A DNA stretch of 9,823 nt, taken from the NCBI GenBank assembly GCA_001701065.1, contig DAAL01000177.1:1-9823 (forward strand), written 5' to 3'. The notes under the pieces were generated by a model. It did no database searches. It was not told the DNA's origin and saw nothing but the letters and a program-made list of their open reading frames with translations. A program made the position numbers and the translations under genes. This document shows, piece after piece, positions 1,018 through 6,257 of the stretch. Source of the DNA: Bacteroidales bacterium GP4 (GTDB lineage Bacteria > Bacteroidota > Bacteroidia > Bacteroidales > Muribaculaceae). Every line of letters begins with the position of its first letter. Within the stretch, counting starts at the first letter, position 1.

Positions 1018-1632
1018 TCAGACAATTCCCAGTTCTTTGAACATTGAGCCTATCTCGGAATAGGTATGATCCCGTTCTCCGTCAGTCAGGCATTTCTCAG
1101 ATTTCAATGCGTTTTCAATGGCATTGAATAAATCTCCCCCTTTCTTCCGGAAGTATTGATGTAATGGATGTGTCCTGAAAAAGCGTTGGGTTTTCTCGTA
1201 GCCGCATATTCGGCATAGTTCGTCCTCGATGCTTTTTGAATCGGCATAGTTTTGTCCGGTATATTTGAAATAATAAAGGAAGAACAGTTCGGTGCAGCGG
1301 TCAGTCTCAAAGAAACGGACTTCATAATTGATTCCCTTTTTCTCATTGTTGACTTTCTTGCCGTGATATTTCCTTTTCAATTCAGAATATGCCGCCCAAC
1401 TCGTCGGGTCTTTCTTCTTATTGTCCATGTCAATCAGACAGAAAATCCTGTCATAACCCATTGAAATTGCTAACTCGATCGAGCGTTCCAATTCGCGCAG
1501 ACTCGTATTCTTCGGAGTGTCCGGCTTGATGCTCTGCAACTGACGGAATTCATCCTTCAATGAATTGAGATAGAAAAACTCCGTCGGTCCTTCACCGATA
1601 ATCACGGTGGTTTGCTTCCTGACTTTTGGCAT
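1018..1632 (-). CDS. RloB/AbiLii-like TOPRIM-fold protein
   Basis: A 204-residue protein. The N-terminal strand and turn read VIIGEGPTE, placing the TOPRIM-type glutamate at E14. A second acidic motif, LIDMDN, gives D68 and D70. About 40 residues later comes RFFETDRCTELFFLYYF (106-122), which corresponds to the NPCFExWxLLHF-like segment typical of RloB, with E115 in the conserved position. RloB proteins pair with an AAA ATPase (RloA; AbiLi/AbiLii in lactococci) in restriction-linked and abortive-infection loci, and the TOPRIM fold suggests a nuclease or nucleic-acid-processing role. Here the ATPase gene sits 3 bases upstream, and the HD gene follows 2 bases downstream. The family call rests on motif order and the partner gene. 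The toxic activity itself is inferred. DUF4435/AriB-type TOPRIM (PARIS) is an alternative. Confidence 0.8.
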   Translation of the reverse strand: MPKVRKQTTVIIGEGPTEFFYLNSLKDEFRQLQSIKPDTPKNTSLRELERSIELAISMGYDRIFCLIDMDNKKKDPTSWAAYSELKRKYHGKKVNNEKKGINYEVRFFETDRCTELFFLYYFKYTGQNYADSKSIEDELCRICGYEKTQRFFRTHPLHQYFRKKGGDLFNAIENALKSEKCLTDGERDHTYSEIGSMFKELGIV

Positions 1633-1635
1633 GGC

Positions 1636-2835
1636 TCAATCCTGATTTAAGATGAAAGGCGAACCCAATACGGGCTTCGAGCCGAATCGTCCTATACGGT
1701 AAGAATTGTAAAGGGAGTGATTCTTGTGAAGTCCAAGCTTGTCAGCTCTTGTGTATTCAGAAGCAGCGGTTTCTGATAATTTCTCAACAAACCACACAGA
1801 TTGGCGGTTTTCATTAAACTGATCCTCTGAGAGCAACGTCATCTCCTGAGTGGTGAAGAACAGTTGAGACTGCCGGGAGTTGGCGAGAAACACCTGTATA
1901 TAATATAGAAGCAGATCATAATGCAAATCCTCGCCTAATTCGTCGAGCATATAGATATGGTCTCCGGTTATGGCATCATACAGATAACTGAGGTCTGTCA
2001 GATATTTTATTGTTCCGGCGGATTGCGTTGATAGCGGCAACATAAAATTACCATCTTCCGACGTATTGACAAACTCAATATGATTGGTCATACCATCTGA
2101 GAGGACATTGAAATTCGAAATGTTGAAATCGGCCTTTTTAAGCATTTCTATAAAGAAACGCTTCTTTCGGGTATCCTCATTCACCTCTTTAAGAAGGGTT
2201 ATTATTTGAGCGTTGTCATTGTTGACACCATGGACATGGGTCTTTATCCAATTGTATAGAGCAGCTATCTTTGCAGCATCATCAGGCAAGGCAACCTTTC
2301 CGTATGTTGAGAGCACAGAATGATTGTTCAATGTGTTCTCACGGAGAACCCTGAGAGTTTTTGTCTTGATTCCGACGCTTGTTCCGAATTTGATTTCACA
2401 TTGACTGTCATCATCTACAAAATTTCTCTCATAGAAAAGCGACTTACTCTTATTGGGATAGTAATAAAGTTCCTCCTTTATAATATGACTTGCATGATAT
2501 GAGACCGTGTAATCATATCTAATGCCGGAAGCATAAAATGAAACGTGCATCTTGGTCGGTTGTTCTGCGGTCAAGGCAAATGGCATTTCAGAATAAACCT
2601 TCTCATTTCTGTCCTTTCGGTCAATAAAGAGCAGTTCAAAGACATTTAGCATGGCTTTGAGCATATTCGATTTACCGGAAGCGTTTGCTCCGAATATTAT
2701 GCCGACACGTCCGACATTAACACCTTGAGCAACTTCGGCACTCATCCAGTTCTCGTCATTGCCTTCTGTTTCAAAGTTCATTGTCTGACGTTCCCGAATC
2801 GACAGGTAGTTTTCAATCCAAAATTCGCGTATCAT
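1636..2835 (-). CDS. RloA/AbiLi-like AAA-family ATPase (ABC/SMC-type fold)
   Basis: A 399-residue ATPase. It opens with MIREFWIENYLSI, the usual start of AAA_15/AAA_21 family proteins. Walker A is GANASGKSN (49-57, K55). A signature-like segment, LSTQSAGTIKYL, lies at 268-279. Walker B is IYMLDE (294-299) with catalytic E299, followed by H305. The usual TTH switch motif reads FFTTQ (326-330), so the switch histidine appears to be glutamine. Such ATPases act as sensors or regulators of a partner effector in anti-phage systems (AbiL, RloAB, PARIS, Gabija-like). The RloB-like partner starts 3 bases after the stop codon. A -7 box at 2887-2880 and a 6-bp hairpin (2859-2864 with 2870-2875) precede the gene. 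The length fits RloA/AbiLi. Function is inferred from family and context. Confidence 0.88.
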   Translation of the reverse strand: MIREFWIENYLSIRERQTMNFETEGNDENWMSAEVAQGVNVGRVGIIFGANASGKSNMLKAMLNVFELLFIDRKDRNEKVYSEMPFALTAEQPTKMHVSFYASGIRYDYTVSYHASHIIKEELYYYPNKSKSLFYERNFVDDDSQCEIKFGTSVGIKTKTLRVLRENTLNNHSVLSTYGKVALPDDAAKIAALYNWIKTHVHGVNNDNAQIITLLKEVNEDTRKKRFFIEMLKKADFNISNFNVLSDGMTNHIEFVNTSEDGNFMLPLSTQSAGTIKYLTDLSYLYDAITGDHIYMLDELGEDLHYDLLLYYIQVFLANSRQSQLFFTTQEMTLLSEDQFNENRQSVWFVEKLSETAASEYTRADKLGLHKNHSLYNSYRIGRFGSKPVLGSPFILNQD

Positions 2836-2938: not shown

Positions 2939-3334
2939 TCATTCAACCTCGGGCGTAAACTTGAACTTGAACGTCGTCATGCAGGAATAGCCGGAGACAT
3001 TCAGATATTTCCAGTCCTCCTTTCCGTCGCAATTAAGTTCCCCCTCGACAACTTTCCCGGATCGTATGCTTTCAGTCATATAGGAGGTCAAGGAAAATCC
3101 ATTACCGGTGCAATCCTTGTTGTTGCATTCATAATGACAATACAATCTATCTTCGGGATTGAAAACGCGATGTATCTCCTGCTCGAATTTCCCAAGACCG
3201 GACAGAAATGTCATTTTCCCTGTCAAGACAACTCCACGGCATTCAGGATATTGCTCACGGATAGAGCGAGAGGTGAAATAATCATTCCATTGGTATTGAC
3301 TGCGTGCTTGCTTGAGTTTCTCTATATTTCTCAT
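2939..3334 (-). CDS. Hypothetical Cys-rich protein
   Basis: A 131-residue cytosolic protein that I cannot assign to a named family. It has no signal peptide and no membrane segment. The visible feature is a cysteine cluster: C66-x3-C70-x4-C75, with more at C32, C102 and C118. H67 sits inside the cluster, so a structural zinc site is plausible. The C-terminal half (CNNKDCTGNGFSL onward) has the look of a conserved Bacteroidales hypothetical protein. The start is supported by a poly-A leader next to ATG and a -7 box 13 bases upstream. It is on the same strand as the ATPase operon, 103 bases away, but a separate -7 box in that gap suggests partly independent expression. It could be an accessory gene of the defence cluster or an unrelated cargo gene. 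Confidence 0.75.
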   Translation of the reverse strand: MRNIEKLKQARSQYQWNDYFTSRSIREQYPECRGVVLTGKMTFLSGLGKFEQEIHRVFNPEDRLYCHYECNNKDCTGNGFSLTSYMTESIRSGKVVEGELNCDGKEDWKYLNVSGYSCMTTFKFKFTPEVE

Positions 3335-3347
3335 TTTTTTTTGGATG

Positions 3348-3355
3348 CAAAATTA
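3348..3355 (-). promoter_or_regulatory. Candidate -7 box for the Cys-rich gene
   Basis: The minus strand reads TAATTTTG, matching TAnnTTTG, 13 bases before the ATG at 3334. The transcript leader would be only about 7 bases, A-rich, with no Shine-Dalgarno. No convincing -33 box is seen. The flanking bases (gctaattttgc) resemble the box at 2880-2887. Confidence 0.4.
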
Positions 3356-3422
3356 GCTCATGACGCTGGCTAAATCTTGCACCGCAATGTTAATTAAAGT
3401 TATTTGGAACCGTAATTTTTTG

Positions 3423-3444
3423 CAATATAAACTCAATATAAACT
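3423..3444. repeat. Perfect 11-bp tandem repeat
   Basis: The unit caatataaact occurs twice without a gap (3423-3433 and 3434-3444). It ends 2 bases before the outer stem of the structured domain at 3447. It could be an operator or part of an AT-rich promoter for a structured transcript. Two copies alone are weak evidence of function. Confidence 0.6.
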
Positions 3445-3446
3445 TT

Positions 3447-3708
3447 AGAGAGGCGCGACGGCTGGGCATTGCGGTCGTATGGCGAAACATTTCAAGGGGG
3501 AGGACAATGCCGTCAGCGGTGTTTGGAGCGAGTCCGGCACTACCGCTGACCGCATTGCCAGATAACGAGAGCAGTCTGAACACCGAGTAACTGACAGCCG
3601 GAGTTGGTTGCGCCGGAGACGTCGCATTTCCAACTCTTGCTGTTTCAGTAACTCCGTGTTTTTTAACGCCCGCTCCATTACTCGTTACTTTTGCCGTCGC
3701 GCCACTCT
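3447..3708. ncRNA. Candidate large structured RNA (or DNA secondary-structure element), domain 1
   Basis: A 262-base block closed by an imperfect 16-bp inverted repeat, agagAggcgcgacggc at 3447-3462 with its complement at 3693-3708 (15 of 16 pair). Nested inside are three stems. The first is 3505-3520 with 3542-3557 (15 of 16). The second is 3563-3569 with 3681-3687 (7 of 7). The third is a compound stem: 3579-3594 with 3645-3660 (14 of 16), then 3595-3598 with 3639-3642, then 3601-3607 with 3630-3636. The loop of the first stem contains tggagcg (3524-3530), complementary to cgctcca (3671-3677), a possible 7-bp pseudoknot. This compatible nesting is what a folded RNA would show. The strand is unresolved because the mismatches are A-A or C-C rather than G-U. 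It matches no family I recognise. A DNA role such as a transfer origin or recombination site is the main alternative. Confidence 0.45.
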
Positions 3709-3719
3709 TCCGTTATCAG

Positions 3720-3813
3720 CACTCCACGATGCGAAAGAATGTGACGGCCTCCGTGCATTACGGCAAACCTCCATTTCCTGATTCCGTCACATACATTCGC
3801 TTTTCCGGGAGTG
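3720..3813. repeat. Long hairpin, domain 2 of the structured region
   Basis: The core is a 17-bp imperfect inverted repeat: gcgaaagaatgtgacgg at 3731-3747 pairs with 3784-3800 at 15 of 17 positions. It is extended at the base by cactcc (3720-3725) with ggagtg (3808-3813). A small apical hairpin, ccgt/acgg, sits at 3751-3763. It lies 12 bases after domain 1. It is not followed by a T-run, so a simple terminator is unlikely. Confidence 0.6.
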
Positions 3814-3871
3814 TGGCATTTCAAATTTCATGTAGGTAACACTTCGACTGATTTTAGAAAAAACATTTCCG

Positions 3872-4228
3872 TATGTCGGTTATTCTGTGTCTCCAAAGAG
3901 GCACTTCGGCTCTATGTTTATTCGGCAATTTCAGCATAATGCAATCAACTATTGGAAAGCATATTCGCTCGTGATGGAATAACGTGCCGGGAACGGGCTA
4001 TTCTTTTGCCGCCTGTCAGAAAAATCTCCACACAAAAAAGGTATTTGCCTACGCAAGCTCCGGCTAATACTTTTTCGGTAGTATTTTCCTGCCGTCGGCG
4101 AACAGCCCGCTATTTCCCCGTCACGCAGGGATAGTAAACGAGCGAACATACTTCAAACAGTGATTAGACGCATTAAGCGGAAAATCAAATAAAAAAATAT
4201 CGCCTTATGACACAGAATAACCGACATA
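3872..4228. repeat. Perfect 20-bp inverted repeat bounding a 357-base segment
   Basis: The left arm, tatgtcggttattctgtgtc (3872-3891), is the exact reverse complement of 4209-4228. The match stops sharply at both ends. The right arm begins at the G of the ATG (4207-4209) of the small membrane-protein gene and covers its first codons. In RNA, pairing of the arms would bury that start codon. In DNA, recombination between the arms would flip 317 bases and replace the AT of the start codon. No recombinase gene is in the window. Confidence 0.75.
3964..4146. other. Nested stems, domain 3 of the structured region
   Basis: Inside the 20-bp inverted repeat, ttcgctcgt (3964-3972) pairs perfectly with 4138-4146, and cgggct (3994-3999) pairs with 4104-4109. 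Between these, 3973-3977 can pair with 4118-4122, including a U-G wobble that favours the plus strand. The innermost hairpin is 4035-4045 with 4066-4075 (gtatt/aatac plus aaaaa/ttttt, one bulged G). The order is fully nested, as in a folded leader or RNA. Confidence 0.4.
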
Positions 4229-4422
4229 TTAGAAATACGAGCTTCACACCATCACCAGCTCATACCGCATTAAGACGGCTGACTAAGGTGGTCGGGATAA
4301 TACTCGGAATGATAATCGGGATTGTCCTTTGGGTGGTAGTGAAACCGATGATAAGAGGTATTGGCTGGCTCATCAGCATACTGACCCTTATCGCAATGAT
4401 ATACTTTGTATTAACATTCTAA
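4207..4422 (+). CDS. Small two-helix membrane protein
   Basis: A 71-residue protein with a basic, Ser/Thr-rich N terminus (1-27) and two hydrophobic stretches at about 29-48 and 53-71, separated by the short basic turn KPMIRG. It is therefore likely an inner-membrane hairpin protein with no enzymatic motif. It is the first gene of the rightward operon. PcfK starts 13 bases after its stop. Its start region is inside the right arm of the 20-bp inverted repeat, which suggests control by RNA folding or DNA inversion. Small membrane proteins beside PcfK/PcfJ-type genes are common on mobile elements, but I do not recognise a named family. Confidence 0.65.
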   Translation: MTQNNRHIRNTSFTPSPAHTALRRLTKVVGIILGMIIGIVLWVVVKPMIRGIGWLISILTLIAMIYFVLTF

Positions 4423-4435
4423 AATATACACGACT

Positions 4436-4891
4436 ATGGCAAACGAAATGAAATCATCAAACGCAGTTATGGAGGTTGTCCGTAACTATATGGAGGAGCG
4501 TTGCGCAAGCGACCCTATCCTCGCTATCAAGTACGCAAATCCGGCGAAGTCTTTGGAAAAGGCATTGAACTATGTGGCTCACGAGGTGCAGAAAAGCGGA
4601 CTCACCATTATGGACTCGGATAGCGTGTTCGGTCTAATCCTTCATTATTACGATGAGAATTTGGAGGATGTCCCCAATGTCAACTGTAAGATAGCGGTTG
4701 CAAAGGAACTCACCGACACCGAGAGAGCAAAAGCAAAGGAGCAGGCTATGGAGCAGTATAGGGAAGAACAACTCCGAGAAATCCGCAGACAGAACCAACC
4801 GAAGGCTACCGCACCCAAGCACACCGCCACCGCACCGAAAGCGGGTGAAGAAATCAATGTTCAACCCAATCTCTTCGGAGATGACTTCTAA
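4436..4891 (+). CDS. PcfK-like protein
   Basis: A 151-residue protein resembling PcfK-like proteins first named on the enterococcal conjugative plasmid pCF10 and frequent on Bacteroidales mobile elements. Residues about 1-82 form the family-like domain, with NPAKSLEKALNYVAHEV and a segment ending VFGLILHYYDENLED. A charged helix (92-120) and a Pro/Ala/Thr linker (121-138) follow. The C terminus, VQPNLFGDDF, contains QPNLF (143-147), which fits the QxxLF pattern of sliding-clamp-binding peptides. The molecular function of the family is unclear. Its gene sits directly before a PcfJ-like gene with an 11-base gap, the standard pairing. Both genes share acgactATG at the start. Confidence 0.8.
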   Translation: MANEMKSSNAVMEVVRNYMEERCASDPILAIKYANPAKSLEKALNYVAHEVQKSGLTIMDSDSVFGLILHYYDENLEDVPNVNCKIAVAKELTDTERAKAKEQAMEQYREEQLREIRRQNQPKATAPKHTATAPKAGEEINVQPNLFGDDF

Positions 4892-4902
4892 AGCATACGA
4901 CT

Positions 4903-6165
4903 ATGAAACCGAGAAATAAGAAGCAAGAGCAGATATTGGCAATGAGTGGGCAGCTTCGCCCACTCACCACCGCCCAAAAGCAGTGGGCACTGACCCATAC
5001 AATCGACAACTATGCCCTGAAATACAAGAAGGGTAAAGCCGTATGTCTGATATGCGGTCACGAGTGGGAAGCCGAGGAAGGAATGTGCCGTTGTCCACAT
5101 TGTGGAGCAAAGGTTGAAGTCAAGACTACCACCCAACGAGTATTAAGGGAAAAGTCATACTTCAACATCATCACGGCAGTAAAGGACTTCCAAGTAATCA
5201 GAATGTTCCTTATGATTGTGGAGTTCAGAAAGGGAATGAAGGCAAATCCGGCATTCATTGAGATAGGACAATATTGGATTGACAAGTATGGTCACGCCAC
5301 AGTCGTAGGACTTCAGCGCACTTTAGGCTTGTATCGTGATTGCTTCGCCTTTGGCTCACCATTGGAAATCAGACGCGACAATGACGCATTCCAACACATA
5401 GCCGACCAATGGGTTTATCCAAGGATAAGGGTAACTGACACCATCAAGCGCAATGGCTTCAAGAACTCCACATATCAAATTCATGCGGTTAAACTCTTCA
5501 AGGCTCTCCTTACCAACCCCAAGGCTGAGACCCTGATGAAAGCCGGAGAGGTGGAATTGGTGAGACACCTTACCTATCAACCTATGGAGGTGGATAAGTA
5601 TTGGAATACAATCAAGATAGCGATGCGCCACGGATATAGGTTTGACGATGTTCCCAAGTGGTTTGACTACATCCGGATGTTGGAAATAATGGATAAAGAC
5701 CTCCATTCCCCCACGCTGATAATGCCCGAAGACCTTACCTCCGCCCATGACCTATATGTCAGAAAGGTAAACCGCAAACGTGAGGATGAACGAAGAGAAG
5801 CCGACCGAAAGAGAGCCATCGAAGACCAAGCCAAGTTCATCGAACTAAAATCCCGTTACTTCGGTCTCTCAATGTCAGACGGACAAATCAACCTCCACAC
5901 CCTTGACACCATAGACGATTACTATGAAGTCGGAAGAAAAATGTCAATATGCGTCGGTAGTGCCCATTATTTCAACAAGTCTGAGTCATTGGTGCTTGTA
6001 GCCTATATCGGCACCAAGCAGATTGCGACAATCGAAATTGCGCTCTCAGATTGCAGTATAATCCAATGCCGAGGATACGCTAACGGAAGTTGCGAATATA
6101 CCAAGCAGATAGCCGACATCATCAAAGCCAACACCTCACTCATCGAGGAGCGCAAGAGAGCATAA
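4903..6165 (+). CDS. PcfJ-like protein
   Basis: A 420-residue protein of the PcfJ type. The N-terminal part has a C4 zinc ribbon (C48/C51 and C64/C67). A helical central region follows, then a charged, probably coiled stretch (about 285-315). The C-terminal PcfJ signature is present: MSICVGSAHYF (347-357), a beta-rich segment IATIEIALSDCSIIQCRGYAN (374-394), with C350, Q388, R390, G391 and N394 in the expected positions. PcfJ proteins accompany PcfK on conjugative elements, and their biochemical role is not established. The zinc ribbon suggests nucleic-acid binding. The gene is intact and ends at a hairpin terminator 18 bases downstream. No relaxase or coupling-protein gene lies nearby, so in this window the pair is detached from transfer genes. 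Confidence 0.85.
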   Translation: MKPRNKKQEQILAMSGQLRPLTTAQKQWALTHTIDNYALKYKKGKAVCLICGHEWEAEEGMCRCPHCGAKVEVKTTTQRVLREKSYFNIITAVKDFQVIRMFLMIVEFRKGMKANPAFIEIGQYWIDKYGHATVVGLQRTLGLYRDCFAFGSPLEIRRDNDAFQHIADQWVYPRIRVTDTIKRNGFKNSTYQIHAVKLFKALLTNPKAETLMKAGEVELVRHLTYQPMEVDKYWNTIKIAMRHGYRFDDVPKWFDYIRMLEIMDKDLHSPTLIMPEDLTSAHDLYVRKVNRKREDERREADRKRAIEDQAKFIELKSRYFGLSMSDGQINLHTLDTIDDYYEVGRKMSICVGSAHYFNKSESLVLVAYIGTKQIATIEIALSDCSIIQCRGYANGSCEYTKQIADIIKANTSLIEERKRA

Positions 6166-6220: not shown

Positions 6221-6242
6221 GTTGATAATCCCTAAAATTTTG

Positions 6243-6257
6243 GCCGCCAGAGGCGGC
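6243..6257. terminator. GC hairpin between convergent pcfJ and glmS units
   Basis: A 6-bp perfect stem, gccgcc/ggcggc, with a 3-base loop. T-runs flank it on both strands (gttttat on plus; the complement of aaaatttt on minus), so it can act in both directions. It lies between two convergent transcription units. Confidence 0.5.

What the first reader, a model, noticed from the sequence alone, without database searches (positions are those of the whole stretch)
3447..3708. A 262-base block with nested helices and a possible pseudoknot in a gene-free stretch
Directly seen: an outer stem of 15/16 pairs (3447-3462 with 3693-3708), three mutually compatible inner stems, and a hairpin loop (3524-3530) perfectly complementary to 3671-3677. 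This many long, properly nested complementarities in 262 bases is far beyond chance. I do not see RNase P, tmRNA or group II domain V signatures. It may be an undescribed large non-coding RNA carried by a Bacteroidales mobile element, or a folded DNA site used in transfer.
Basis: partly seen in the sequence, partly recalled or inferred. Interest (0 to 1): 0.75.

Follow-up and report, generated by a model that had tools for sequence, protein, structure and literature searches.

The report
Folded transfer-strand switch beside pcfK
This stretch is one of three folded elements that stand in a conserved order, on one strand, beside the pcfK-pcfJ genes of mobile DNA in Bacteroidales; it likely folds when the element enters a new cell as single-stranded DNA and would there start expression or copying of the element.

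Summary
The 262-base block (3447-3708) is real and strongly folded, and it is part 1 of a three-part array (block 1 3447-3708, block 2 3717-3816, block 3 3866-4234) upstream of a 71-aa ORF, pcfK and pcfJ. Relatives, mostly Muribaculaceae, keep the helices of blocks 1 and 3 through compensatory changes, best on the strand antisense to pcfK. No Rfam match reaches threshold. Block 3 lies 192-518 nt upstream of pcfK, antisense, in 64 of 83 places found. The proposed pseudoknot is not conserved and clashes with a covarying helix. Cargo genes beside block 1 mostly have the Bacteroides -7 box; the pcfK operon shows none at a shared place. Repeats before mobA in relatives with a relaxase suggest that the folded strand is the transferred strand (inferred from a recalled consensus). 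I therefore favour a single-strand promoter or priming site (working like Frpo/ssi/sso) over a non-coding RNA. No transcript, nick or activity was measured; RNA versus single-stranded DNA is the open question.

The parts
3447..3708 (-). Block 1: 262-nt fold, outer stem plus covarying hairpin arms; the folded strand is antisense to pcfK
   Evidence: model R2
3717..3816 (-). Block 2: about 100-nt hairpin whose stem has two T.T mismatches around one pair (A.A on the + strand); the strict motif is met in 20 of 41 loci tested, the window included
   Evidence: no covariation claim is made for this block
3866..4234 (-). Block 3: about 370-nt long hairpin; core 3956-4154; apex AAAATAC / TGGAGATTTTT invariant in the 31 aligned sequences
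   Evidence: model R1
4207..4422 (+). 71-aa ORF with hydrophobic stretch, first ORF before pcfK; its start lies in the outer stem of block 3
   Evidence: no Pfam match
4436..4891 (+). pcfK
   Evidence: PF14058, E 4.4e-28
4903..6165 (+). pcfJ, with a C-x2-C...C-x2-C zinc-ribbon-like N-terminal part (by eye)
   Evidence: PF14284, E 1.6e-30
6242..6257 (.). small GC hairpin GGCCGCC..GGCGGC that marks the right end of the element; the flank after it in the window holds a glmS-like gene
3348..3355 (-). TAATTTTG, match to the Bacteroides -7 box, between block 1 and the first cargo ORF
   Evidence: consensus recalled
2939..3334 (-). 131-aa cargo ORF; with its flanks an extra 489-nt piece relative to L001
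1636..2835 (-). AAA ATPase, AbiLi-like defence cargo
1018..1632 (-). RloB / AbiLii-like defence cargo

Best explanation
Blocks 3, 2 and 1 are a conserved, strand-biased folded array upstream of pcfK-pcfJ in Bacteroidales mobile elements, and they likely work as single-stranded DNA on the transferred strand, where block 3 would act as a promoter or priming site for the genes next to it. Shown: the predicted folds with compensatory changes (blocks 1 and 3), the strand bias, the order and the place. Inferred: that the folded strand is the transferred strand (repeats before mobA, gene order). Inferred and untested: on entry, before the second strand is made, the hairpin gives RNA polymerase or a primase a double-stranded landing site; the strand running 5' of it is the template of the 71-aa ORF, pcfK and pcfJ, so these would be expressed early and/or second-strand synthesis primed. 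Once the element is double-stranded the hairpins would disappear and cargo genes would run from ordinary promoters. Blocks 2 and 1 would be further sites of the same kind or would guard the boundary to the cargo; their role is least certain.
For: Covariation: block 1, 24 of 41 pairs with both sides changed (slid controls 6-10), 95.2% of cells paired; block 3 core, 21 of 49 (slid 4-10), 95.4%. The models find relatives outside their training sets: six full-length for block 3 at 69-90 bits; eight full-length at 82-127 bits and two partial at 102 bits for block 1. Strand: on the folded strand non-Watson-Crick cells are G.T 144 versus A.C 10 (block 3) and 56 versus 20 (block 1); ssDNA z -9.8 versus -7.8 for block 3 and -7.8 versus -5.4 for block 1. 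Place: of 83 block 3 places in 397 genomes of the family of G001 (Heminiphilus faecis), 65 lie within 5 kb upstream of a pcfK match, all 65 antisense, 64 of them at 192-518 nt (16 weaker opposite-strand matches at the same places were dropped before the count). Order: in 19 genomes chosen because they had matches, 50 of 54 block 3 copies have block 1 on the same strand within 6 kb, 43 of them within 400 nt. Promoters: TAnnTTTG lies on the pcfK strand in the up to 500 nt before the operon in 4 of 27 loci, at four different offsets, but between block 1 and a same-strand next ORF in 18 of 25 (some of these are near-identical copies). Transferred strand: in 16 of 33 pcfK loci a relaxase match lies 15-25 kb downstream on the same strand; before mobA, 21 of 22 loci examined (of 30 returned) show a GCAAG/CTTGC repeat whose arm on the strand antisense to pcfK fits the IncP nick consensus YATCCTG^Y (recalled) at 6-7 of 8 positions, never worse than the other arm (4-6), two ties. 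Printed precedent: Frpo1/2 of F use the T-strand as template and are shut off by second-strand synthesis (PMC9849209, passages).
Against: No activity, transcript or nick was measured. No shared TAnnTTTG box was found in or near the hairpin, while F's Frpo rebuilds -35/-10 boxes. The transferred strand rests on a recalled consensus on a near-symmetric repeat that I chose after seeing three examples. Of the 16 linked elements only three have a full-length R1 match (G003:C4, G004:C37, G005:C9), one of these showed no repeat (L199), and several others match only at the apex. Under this strand the tra genes would enter first, unlike in F. The part of the element seen in the window has no relaxase or tra gene, and none was found near its close copies with L109 proteins as queries. 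Invariant G.T pairs (31 of 31 sequences at one position) are as expected of an RNA. 12 of 62 block 1 copies have no block 3 within 6 kb on the same strand in the whole-genome searches (one of them, G004:C75, does show one as L045). 51 of 117 pcfK matches have no R1 place upstream under strict filters. Structure and strand counts come from alignments on which the structures were predicted.
Confidence: 0.48

Rival explanations
1. The array is a large non-coding RNA of about 760 nt, or two RNAs, transcribed antisense to pcfK, which binds an element protein or regulates pcfK or transfer, as RteR or the SGI1 sgm-sRNA act in other elements.
For: Covariation, invariant G.U pairs and strand asymmetry are what an RNA shows. 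The order on one strand suits one transcript. RNAs in such elements exist: sgm-sRNA of SGI1 is needed for mobilisation (PMC9299015, abstract and passages); RteR is described in PMC7366714 (passages).
Against: TAnnTTTG on that strand lies within 500 nt to the right of block 3 in only 2 of 27 loci. In 7 of 50 copies 0.64-4.4 kb separate block 3 from block 1, and in L002, L008 and L010 ORFs lie between them, which would break one transcript. No Rfam match above threshold.
Confidence: 0.3
2. The blocks are insulators or terminators between the pcfK genes and the divergent cargo genes.
For: Block 1 sits 30-321 nt before a same-strand next ORF in 25 of 28 places.
Against: Such long covarying folds with invariant motifs are not needed for that (inference); the strand bias is unexplained; 3 of 28 neighbours point the other way.
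Confidence: 0.1
3. The blocks are folded single-strand recombination sites, like attC of integrons, for exchange of defence cargo.
For: Cargo varies left of block 1 and between blocks 3 and 2; block 1-2 recurs away from block 3, twice 3 kb apart in L171.
Against: No R box GTTRRRY (recalled) was seen by eye at 47 block 1 edges; the edge of conservation varies by tens of bases; some extra copies sit beside pcfJ remnants (L177). An integron integrase was not searched for.
Confidence: 0.07
4. Block 3 or the array is a second origin of transfer.
For: Close copies of the window's element carry an integrase, cargo, blocks and pcfKJ but no relaxase or tra match to L109 proteins within the 20-kb loci, so they may need a cis site for help in trans.
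Against: A separate conserved repeat lies before mobA in relatives, two of which (L194, L195) belong to elements with a full block 3.
Confidence: 0.05

Closest known systems
Frpo / ssi single-strand promoters of F and ColIb-P9
   Same: Hairpin upstream of genes whose template is the (here predicted) transferred strand; those genes lack a shared standard box here
   Different: No standard boxes found; about 370 nt plus two further blocks; Bacteroidales host; activity untested; sequence not compared
sso single-strand origins, e.g. sso1 of ICEBs1 (PMC4595007)
   Same: Strand-specific stem-loops in an integrative conjugative element; structure said there to matter more than sequence
   Different: sso1 lies just downstream of nicK in a Bacillus element; the array here is larger and stands beside pcfK
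sgm-sRNA of SGI1 and RteR of CTnDOT
   Same: RNAs of mobile elements that act on transfer
   Different: No transcript known here; RteR is 90 nt (PMC7366714 passage)
Large bacterial ncRNAs such as ROOL and GOLLD (recalled)
   Same: Long multi-domain folds in mobile DNA
   Different: No Rfam match above threshold; domains separated by 0.64-4.4 kb in 7 of 50 copies

Membership tests
Frpo/ssi single-strand promoter | Stable hairpin on the strand that is template for the genes next to it | tested here: met
   65 of 65 linked places antisense to pcfK; z -9.8 as DNA
Frpo/ssi single-strand promoter | Hairpin lies on the transferred strand | tested here: inconclusive
   repeat arm fits 6-7 of 8 in 21 of 22 loci, two ties; consensus recalled, nick not mapped
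Frpo/ssi single-strand promoter | Rebuilt promoter boxes in the stem | tested here: not met
   no shared TAnnTTTG in 27 loci; E. coli-type boxes not tested
Frpo/ssi single-strand promoter | Transcription from ssDNA | not testable with these tools
   needs in vitro or mating assay
Single-strand origin (sso) | Orientation-specific conversion of ssDNA to dsDNA | not testable with these tools
   needs plasmid stability or ssDNA assay
Structured ncRNA | Covarying helices | tested here: met
   blocks 1 and 3
Structured ncRNA | Transcript from the folded strand | not testable with these tools
   no RNA-seq at hand; no shared promoter box
Structured ncRNA | Match to a described Rfam family | tested here: not met
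   window and six relatives, Rfam 15; none in the array above gathering score; one chance-level match (mir-9256, E 0.18) in block 1 of L005
Integron attC site | R box GTTRRRY at the edge | tested here: not met
   47 block 1 edges read by eye; box recalled
Integron attC site | Integron integrase | not tested
   the nine window proteins scanned hold no integrase; that of L110 matches the general phage-integrase family

The most novel reading that the evidence does not exclude
A Bacteroidota-specific single-strand switch: a three-part fold of the transferred strand that turns on pcfK-pcfJ, and primes second-strand synthesis, only while the element is single-stranded, with no classical promoter boxes, and that is kept even by small defence-carrying elements without transfer genes.
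Probability: 0.35. Interest if true: 0.8.

Novelty: new variant of a known kind. Interest (0 to 1): 0.62.

Why it matters
Conjugative elements spread genes through the gut microbiota, but how they start up in a new Bacteroidales cell is little known, and the functions of PcfK and PcfJ are not known to me. A conserved fold at a fixed place, on the predicted incoming strand, with covariance models at hand, makes the question directly testable: is the incoming single strand read or primed there, or is an RNA made? Either answer adds an element family that has no match above threshold in Rfam 15.

Tried and rejected
Window block against phages and plasmids by blastn: no match. Viral contigs with PcfK and with the 71-aa ORF: no confirmed relative. 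PcfJ: no informative PDB sequence match; AlphaFold2 model of low confidence (mean pLDDT 69.7, pTM 0.45) and no fold match at E <= 0.001. Pseudoknot: rejected. Cassette array (attC-like): considered after extra block 1-2 copies were seen, set aside because no precise shared edge was seen. Model R3 (block 2) has a poor structure (6 pairs), so no covariation claim is made for block 2; a strict search for its double mismatch met 20 of 41, and in some loci the stem is fully paired or has one mismatch. End repeats of the element: no convincing direct repeat. Papers: one paper of the library holds both PcfJ and PcfK (listing only); a search for structured RNA or ssDNA promoters in Bacteroidales elements listed seven papers, none opened, none naming this array in the title or the start of the abstract shown. 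Peed et al. 2010 on the CTn341 oriT is not held.

Rows dropped before counts: 16 opposite-strand R1 matches; 10 R2 matches under 26 bits; all 32 relaxase rows with 190 bits or more and two weaker rows were used, the rest were not; of 30 loci, eight partial or weak ones (L193, L198, L207-L212) were not used.

Full report
What is there. The finding's block 1 (3447-3708) has the stated outer stem (15 of 16) and a second stem 3505-3520/3542-3557 (15 of 16). It is followed by block 2 (3717-3816) and block 3 (3866-4234), whose 20-bp perfect outer stem reaches into the start of a 71-aa ORF. Folded as DNA, block 3 has z -9.8 on the - strand and -7.8 on the + strand; block 1 has -7.8 and -5.4. To the right lie the 71-aa ORF, pcfK and pcfJ, then a small hairpin at 6242-6257 that ends the element, and a glmS-like gene. 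To the left, on the other strand, lie a 131-aa ORF and an AAA + RloB pair whose best PADLOC matches are AbiLi and AbiLii.

Relatives. A scan of genome contigs with PcfK gave 16 loci, mostly Muribaculaceae by record title. Folds of this kind recur with much sequence change. Alignments were made of block 3 cores (A3, 31 sequences), block 1 (A4, 23) and block 2 (A5, 22).

Covariation. Block 1: 24 of 41 pairs show changes on both sides, 151 such cells, covariation score 0.458 against 0.189 for shuffles, with 0 of 500 shuffles as high, and 6-10 pairs when partners are slid. Block 3 core: 21 of 49 pairs, 190 cells, score 0.340 against 0.134, 0 of 500, slid 4-10. One measure, the number of further pair types, is not clearly above shuffles in either (58 of 500 and 369 of 500 as high). 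The structures were predicted from these same alignments, which favours them. More independent support: the models find relatives outside training, L020, L105, L101, L025, L045 and L094 full-length for block 3 and L017, L104, L018, L019, L081, L080, L008, L010 full-length plus L014 and L095 partial for block 1.

Strand. On the folded strand (antisense to pcfK) non-Watson-Crick cells are mostly G.T: 144 against 10 A.C in block 3 and 56 against 20 in block 1; the structures were predicted on that strand, which leans the count. One G.T pair is kept in 31 of 31 sequences. A less biased look: the most stable 300-nt window in up to 1.5 kb upstream of 38 PcfK loci has z of -5 or lower in 21, and in 20 of these it lies on the antisense strand. 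Six distant loci shown (L048, L050, L053, L055, L049, L028) hold one long hairpin with the same apex.

Place and order. In 397 genomes of the family of G001, R1 finds 83 places in 47 genomes once 16 opposite-strand matches at the same places are dropped; 65 are within 5 kb upstream of a pcfK match, all antisense, 64 at 192-518 nt; 18 have no pcfK match on the contig, several at contig ends; 51 of 117 pcfK matches have no R1 place upstream, many of them distant PcfK types. That search used stricter filters: G004:C75 was missed there but matches (L045). Of 25 PcfK loci from the order-wide draw given to R1, 10 match at E <= 1, mainly at the apex. In 19 chosen genomes block 1 follows block 3 on the same strand within 6 kb in 50 of 54; block 2 sits 9-12 nt before block 1 in 40 of 62; 12 of 62 block 1 copies have no block 3 within 6 kb. 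Beyond block 1 the next ORF points the same way in 25 of 28, with a TAnnTTTG box in the gap in 18 of those 25. For the pcfK operon such a box lies upstream in 4 of 27, at four unrelated offsets, and for a possible antisense RNA to the right of block 3 in 2 of 27. The box consensus is recalled.

Which strand travels. In a Prevotella nigrescens plasmid the order is pcfK, pcfJ, then tra genes on the other strand, then mobB and mobC on the pcfK strand. In 16 of 33 pcfK loci a relaxase match lies 15-25 kb downstream on the same strand; 15 have none within 40 kb on the contig among the rows used; 2 have weak matches placed otherwise. Before mobA there is a repeat with GCAAG and CTTGC arms; the arm whose CTTGC is on the strand antisense to pcfK looks the more alike between elements and fits the recalled IncP consensus at 6-7 of 8 in 21 of 22 loci examined, the other arm at 4-6, with two ties. 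I infer that the transferred strand is the folded strand. This rests on a recalled consensus, not on a mapped nick.

Mechanism. F's Frpo sequences fold in the entering strand, use it as template for early genes and fall silent when the second strand is made, while other genes use conventional promoters (PMC9849209, passages read; PMC11541004, passages). ICEBs1 has a strand-specific sso made of stem-loops (PMC4595007, passages). The array here has the place, strand and contrast in promoters that such a site would have. It lacks recognisable boxes, so priming by a primase is as possible as transcription. The RNA reading keeps 0.3.

The window's element. L110 and L120 share a 9.3-kb stretch with a phage-type integrase, cargo, blocks, pcfK and pcfJ, and different flanks; no match to MobB, TraG or TraJ of L109 lies in these 20-kb loci. 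The left end is uncertain because ORFs that look like an IS21 pair (by eye) abut it in L110. So the array may be kept by small elements that borrow transfer functions (inference).

Noticed in passing
window about 4030-4090 and same spot in L005, L006, L008: The apex of block 3 carries about 40 extra nt that can form a hairpin in these loci but not in the close relative L001, as if a small hairpin had been inserted or exchanged.
   Followed up: no
window 2946-3434: The 131-aa ORF with its flanks is an extra 489-nt piece relative to L001; AATATAAACT stands twice at its right edge (about 3424-3444) and once in L001.
   Followed up: partly
window 6242-6257; L110, L120, L002, L003, L015: A small GC hairpin GGCCGCC..GGCGGC marks the right end of the element before differing DNA.
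   Followed up: partly
window 1018-2835: AAA + RloB pair, AbiLi/AbiLii-like by PADLOC with a weaker AriA match.
   Followed up: no
L171 8237-8568 and 11296-11627: Two block 1-2 copies 3 kb apart in the same orientation; whole-genome R1 found no block 3 on that contig.
   Followed up: partly
G470 contig C1: One genome holds seven block 3 places and nine pcfK matches.
   Followed up: no
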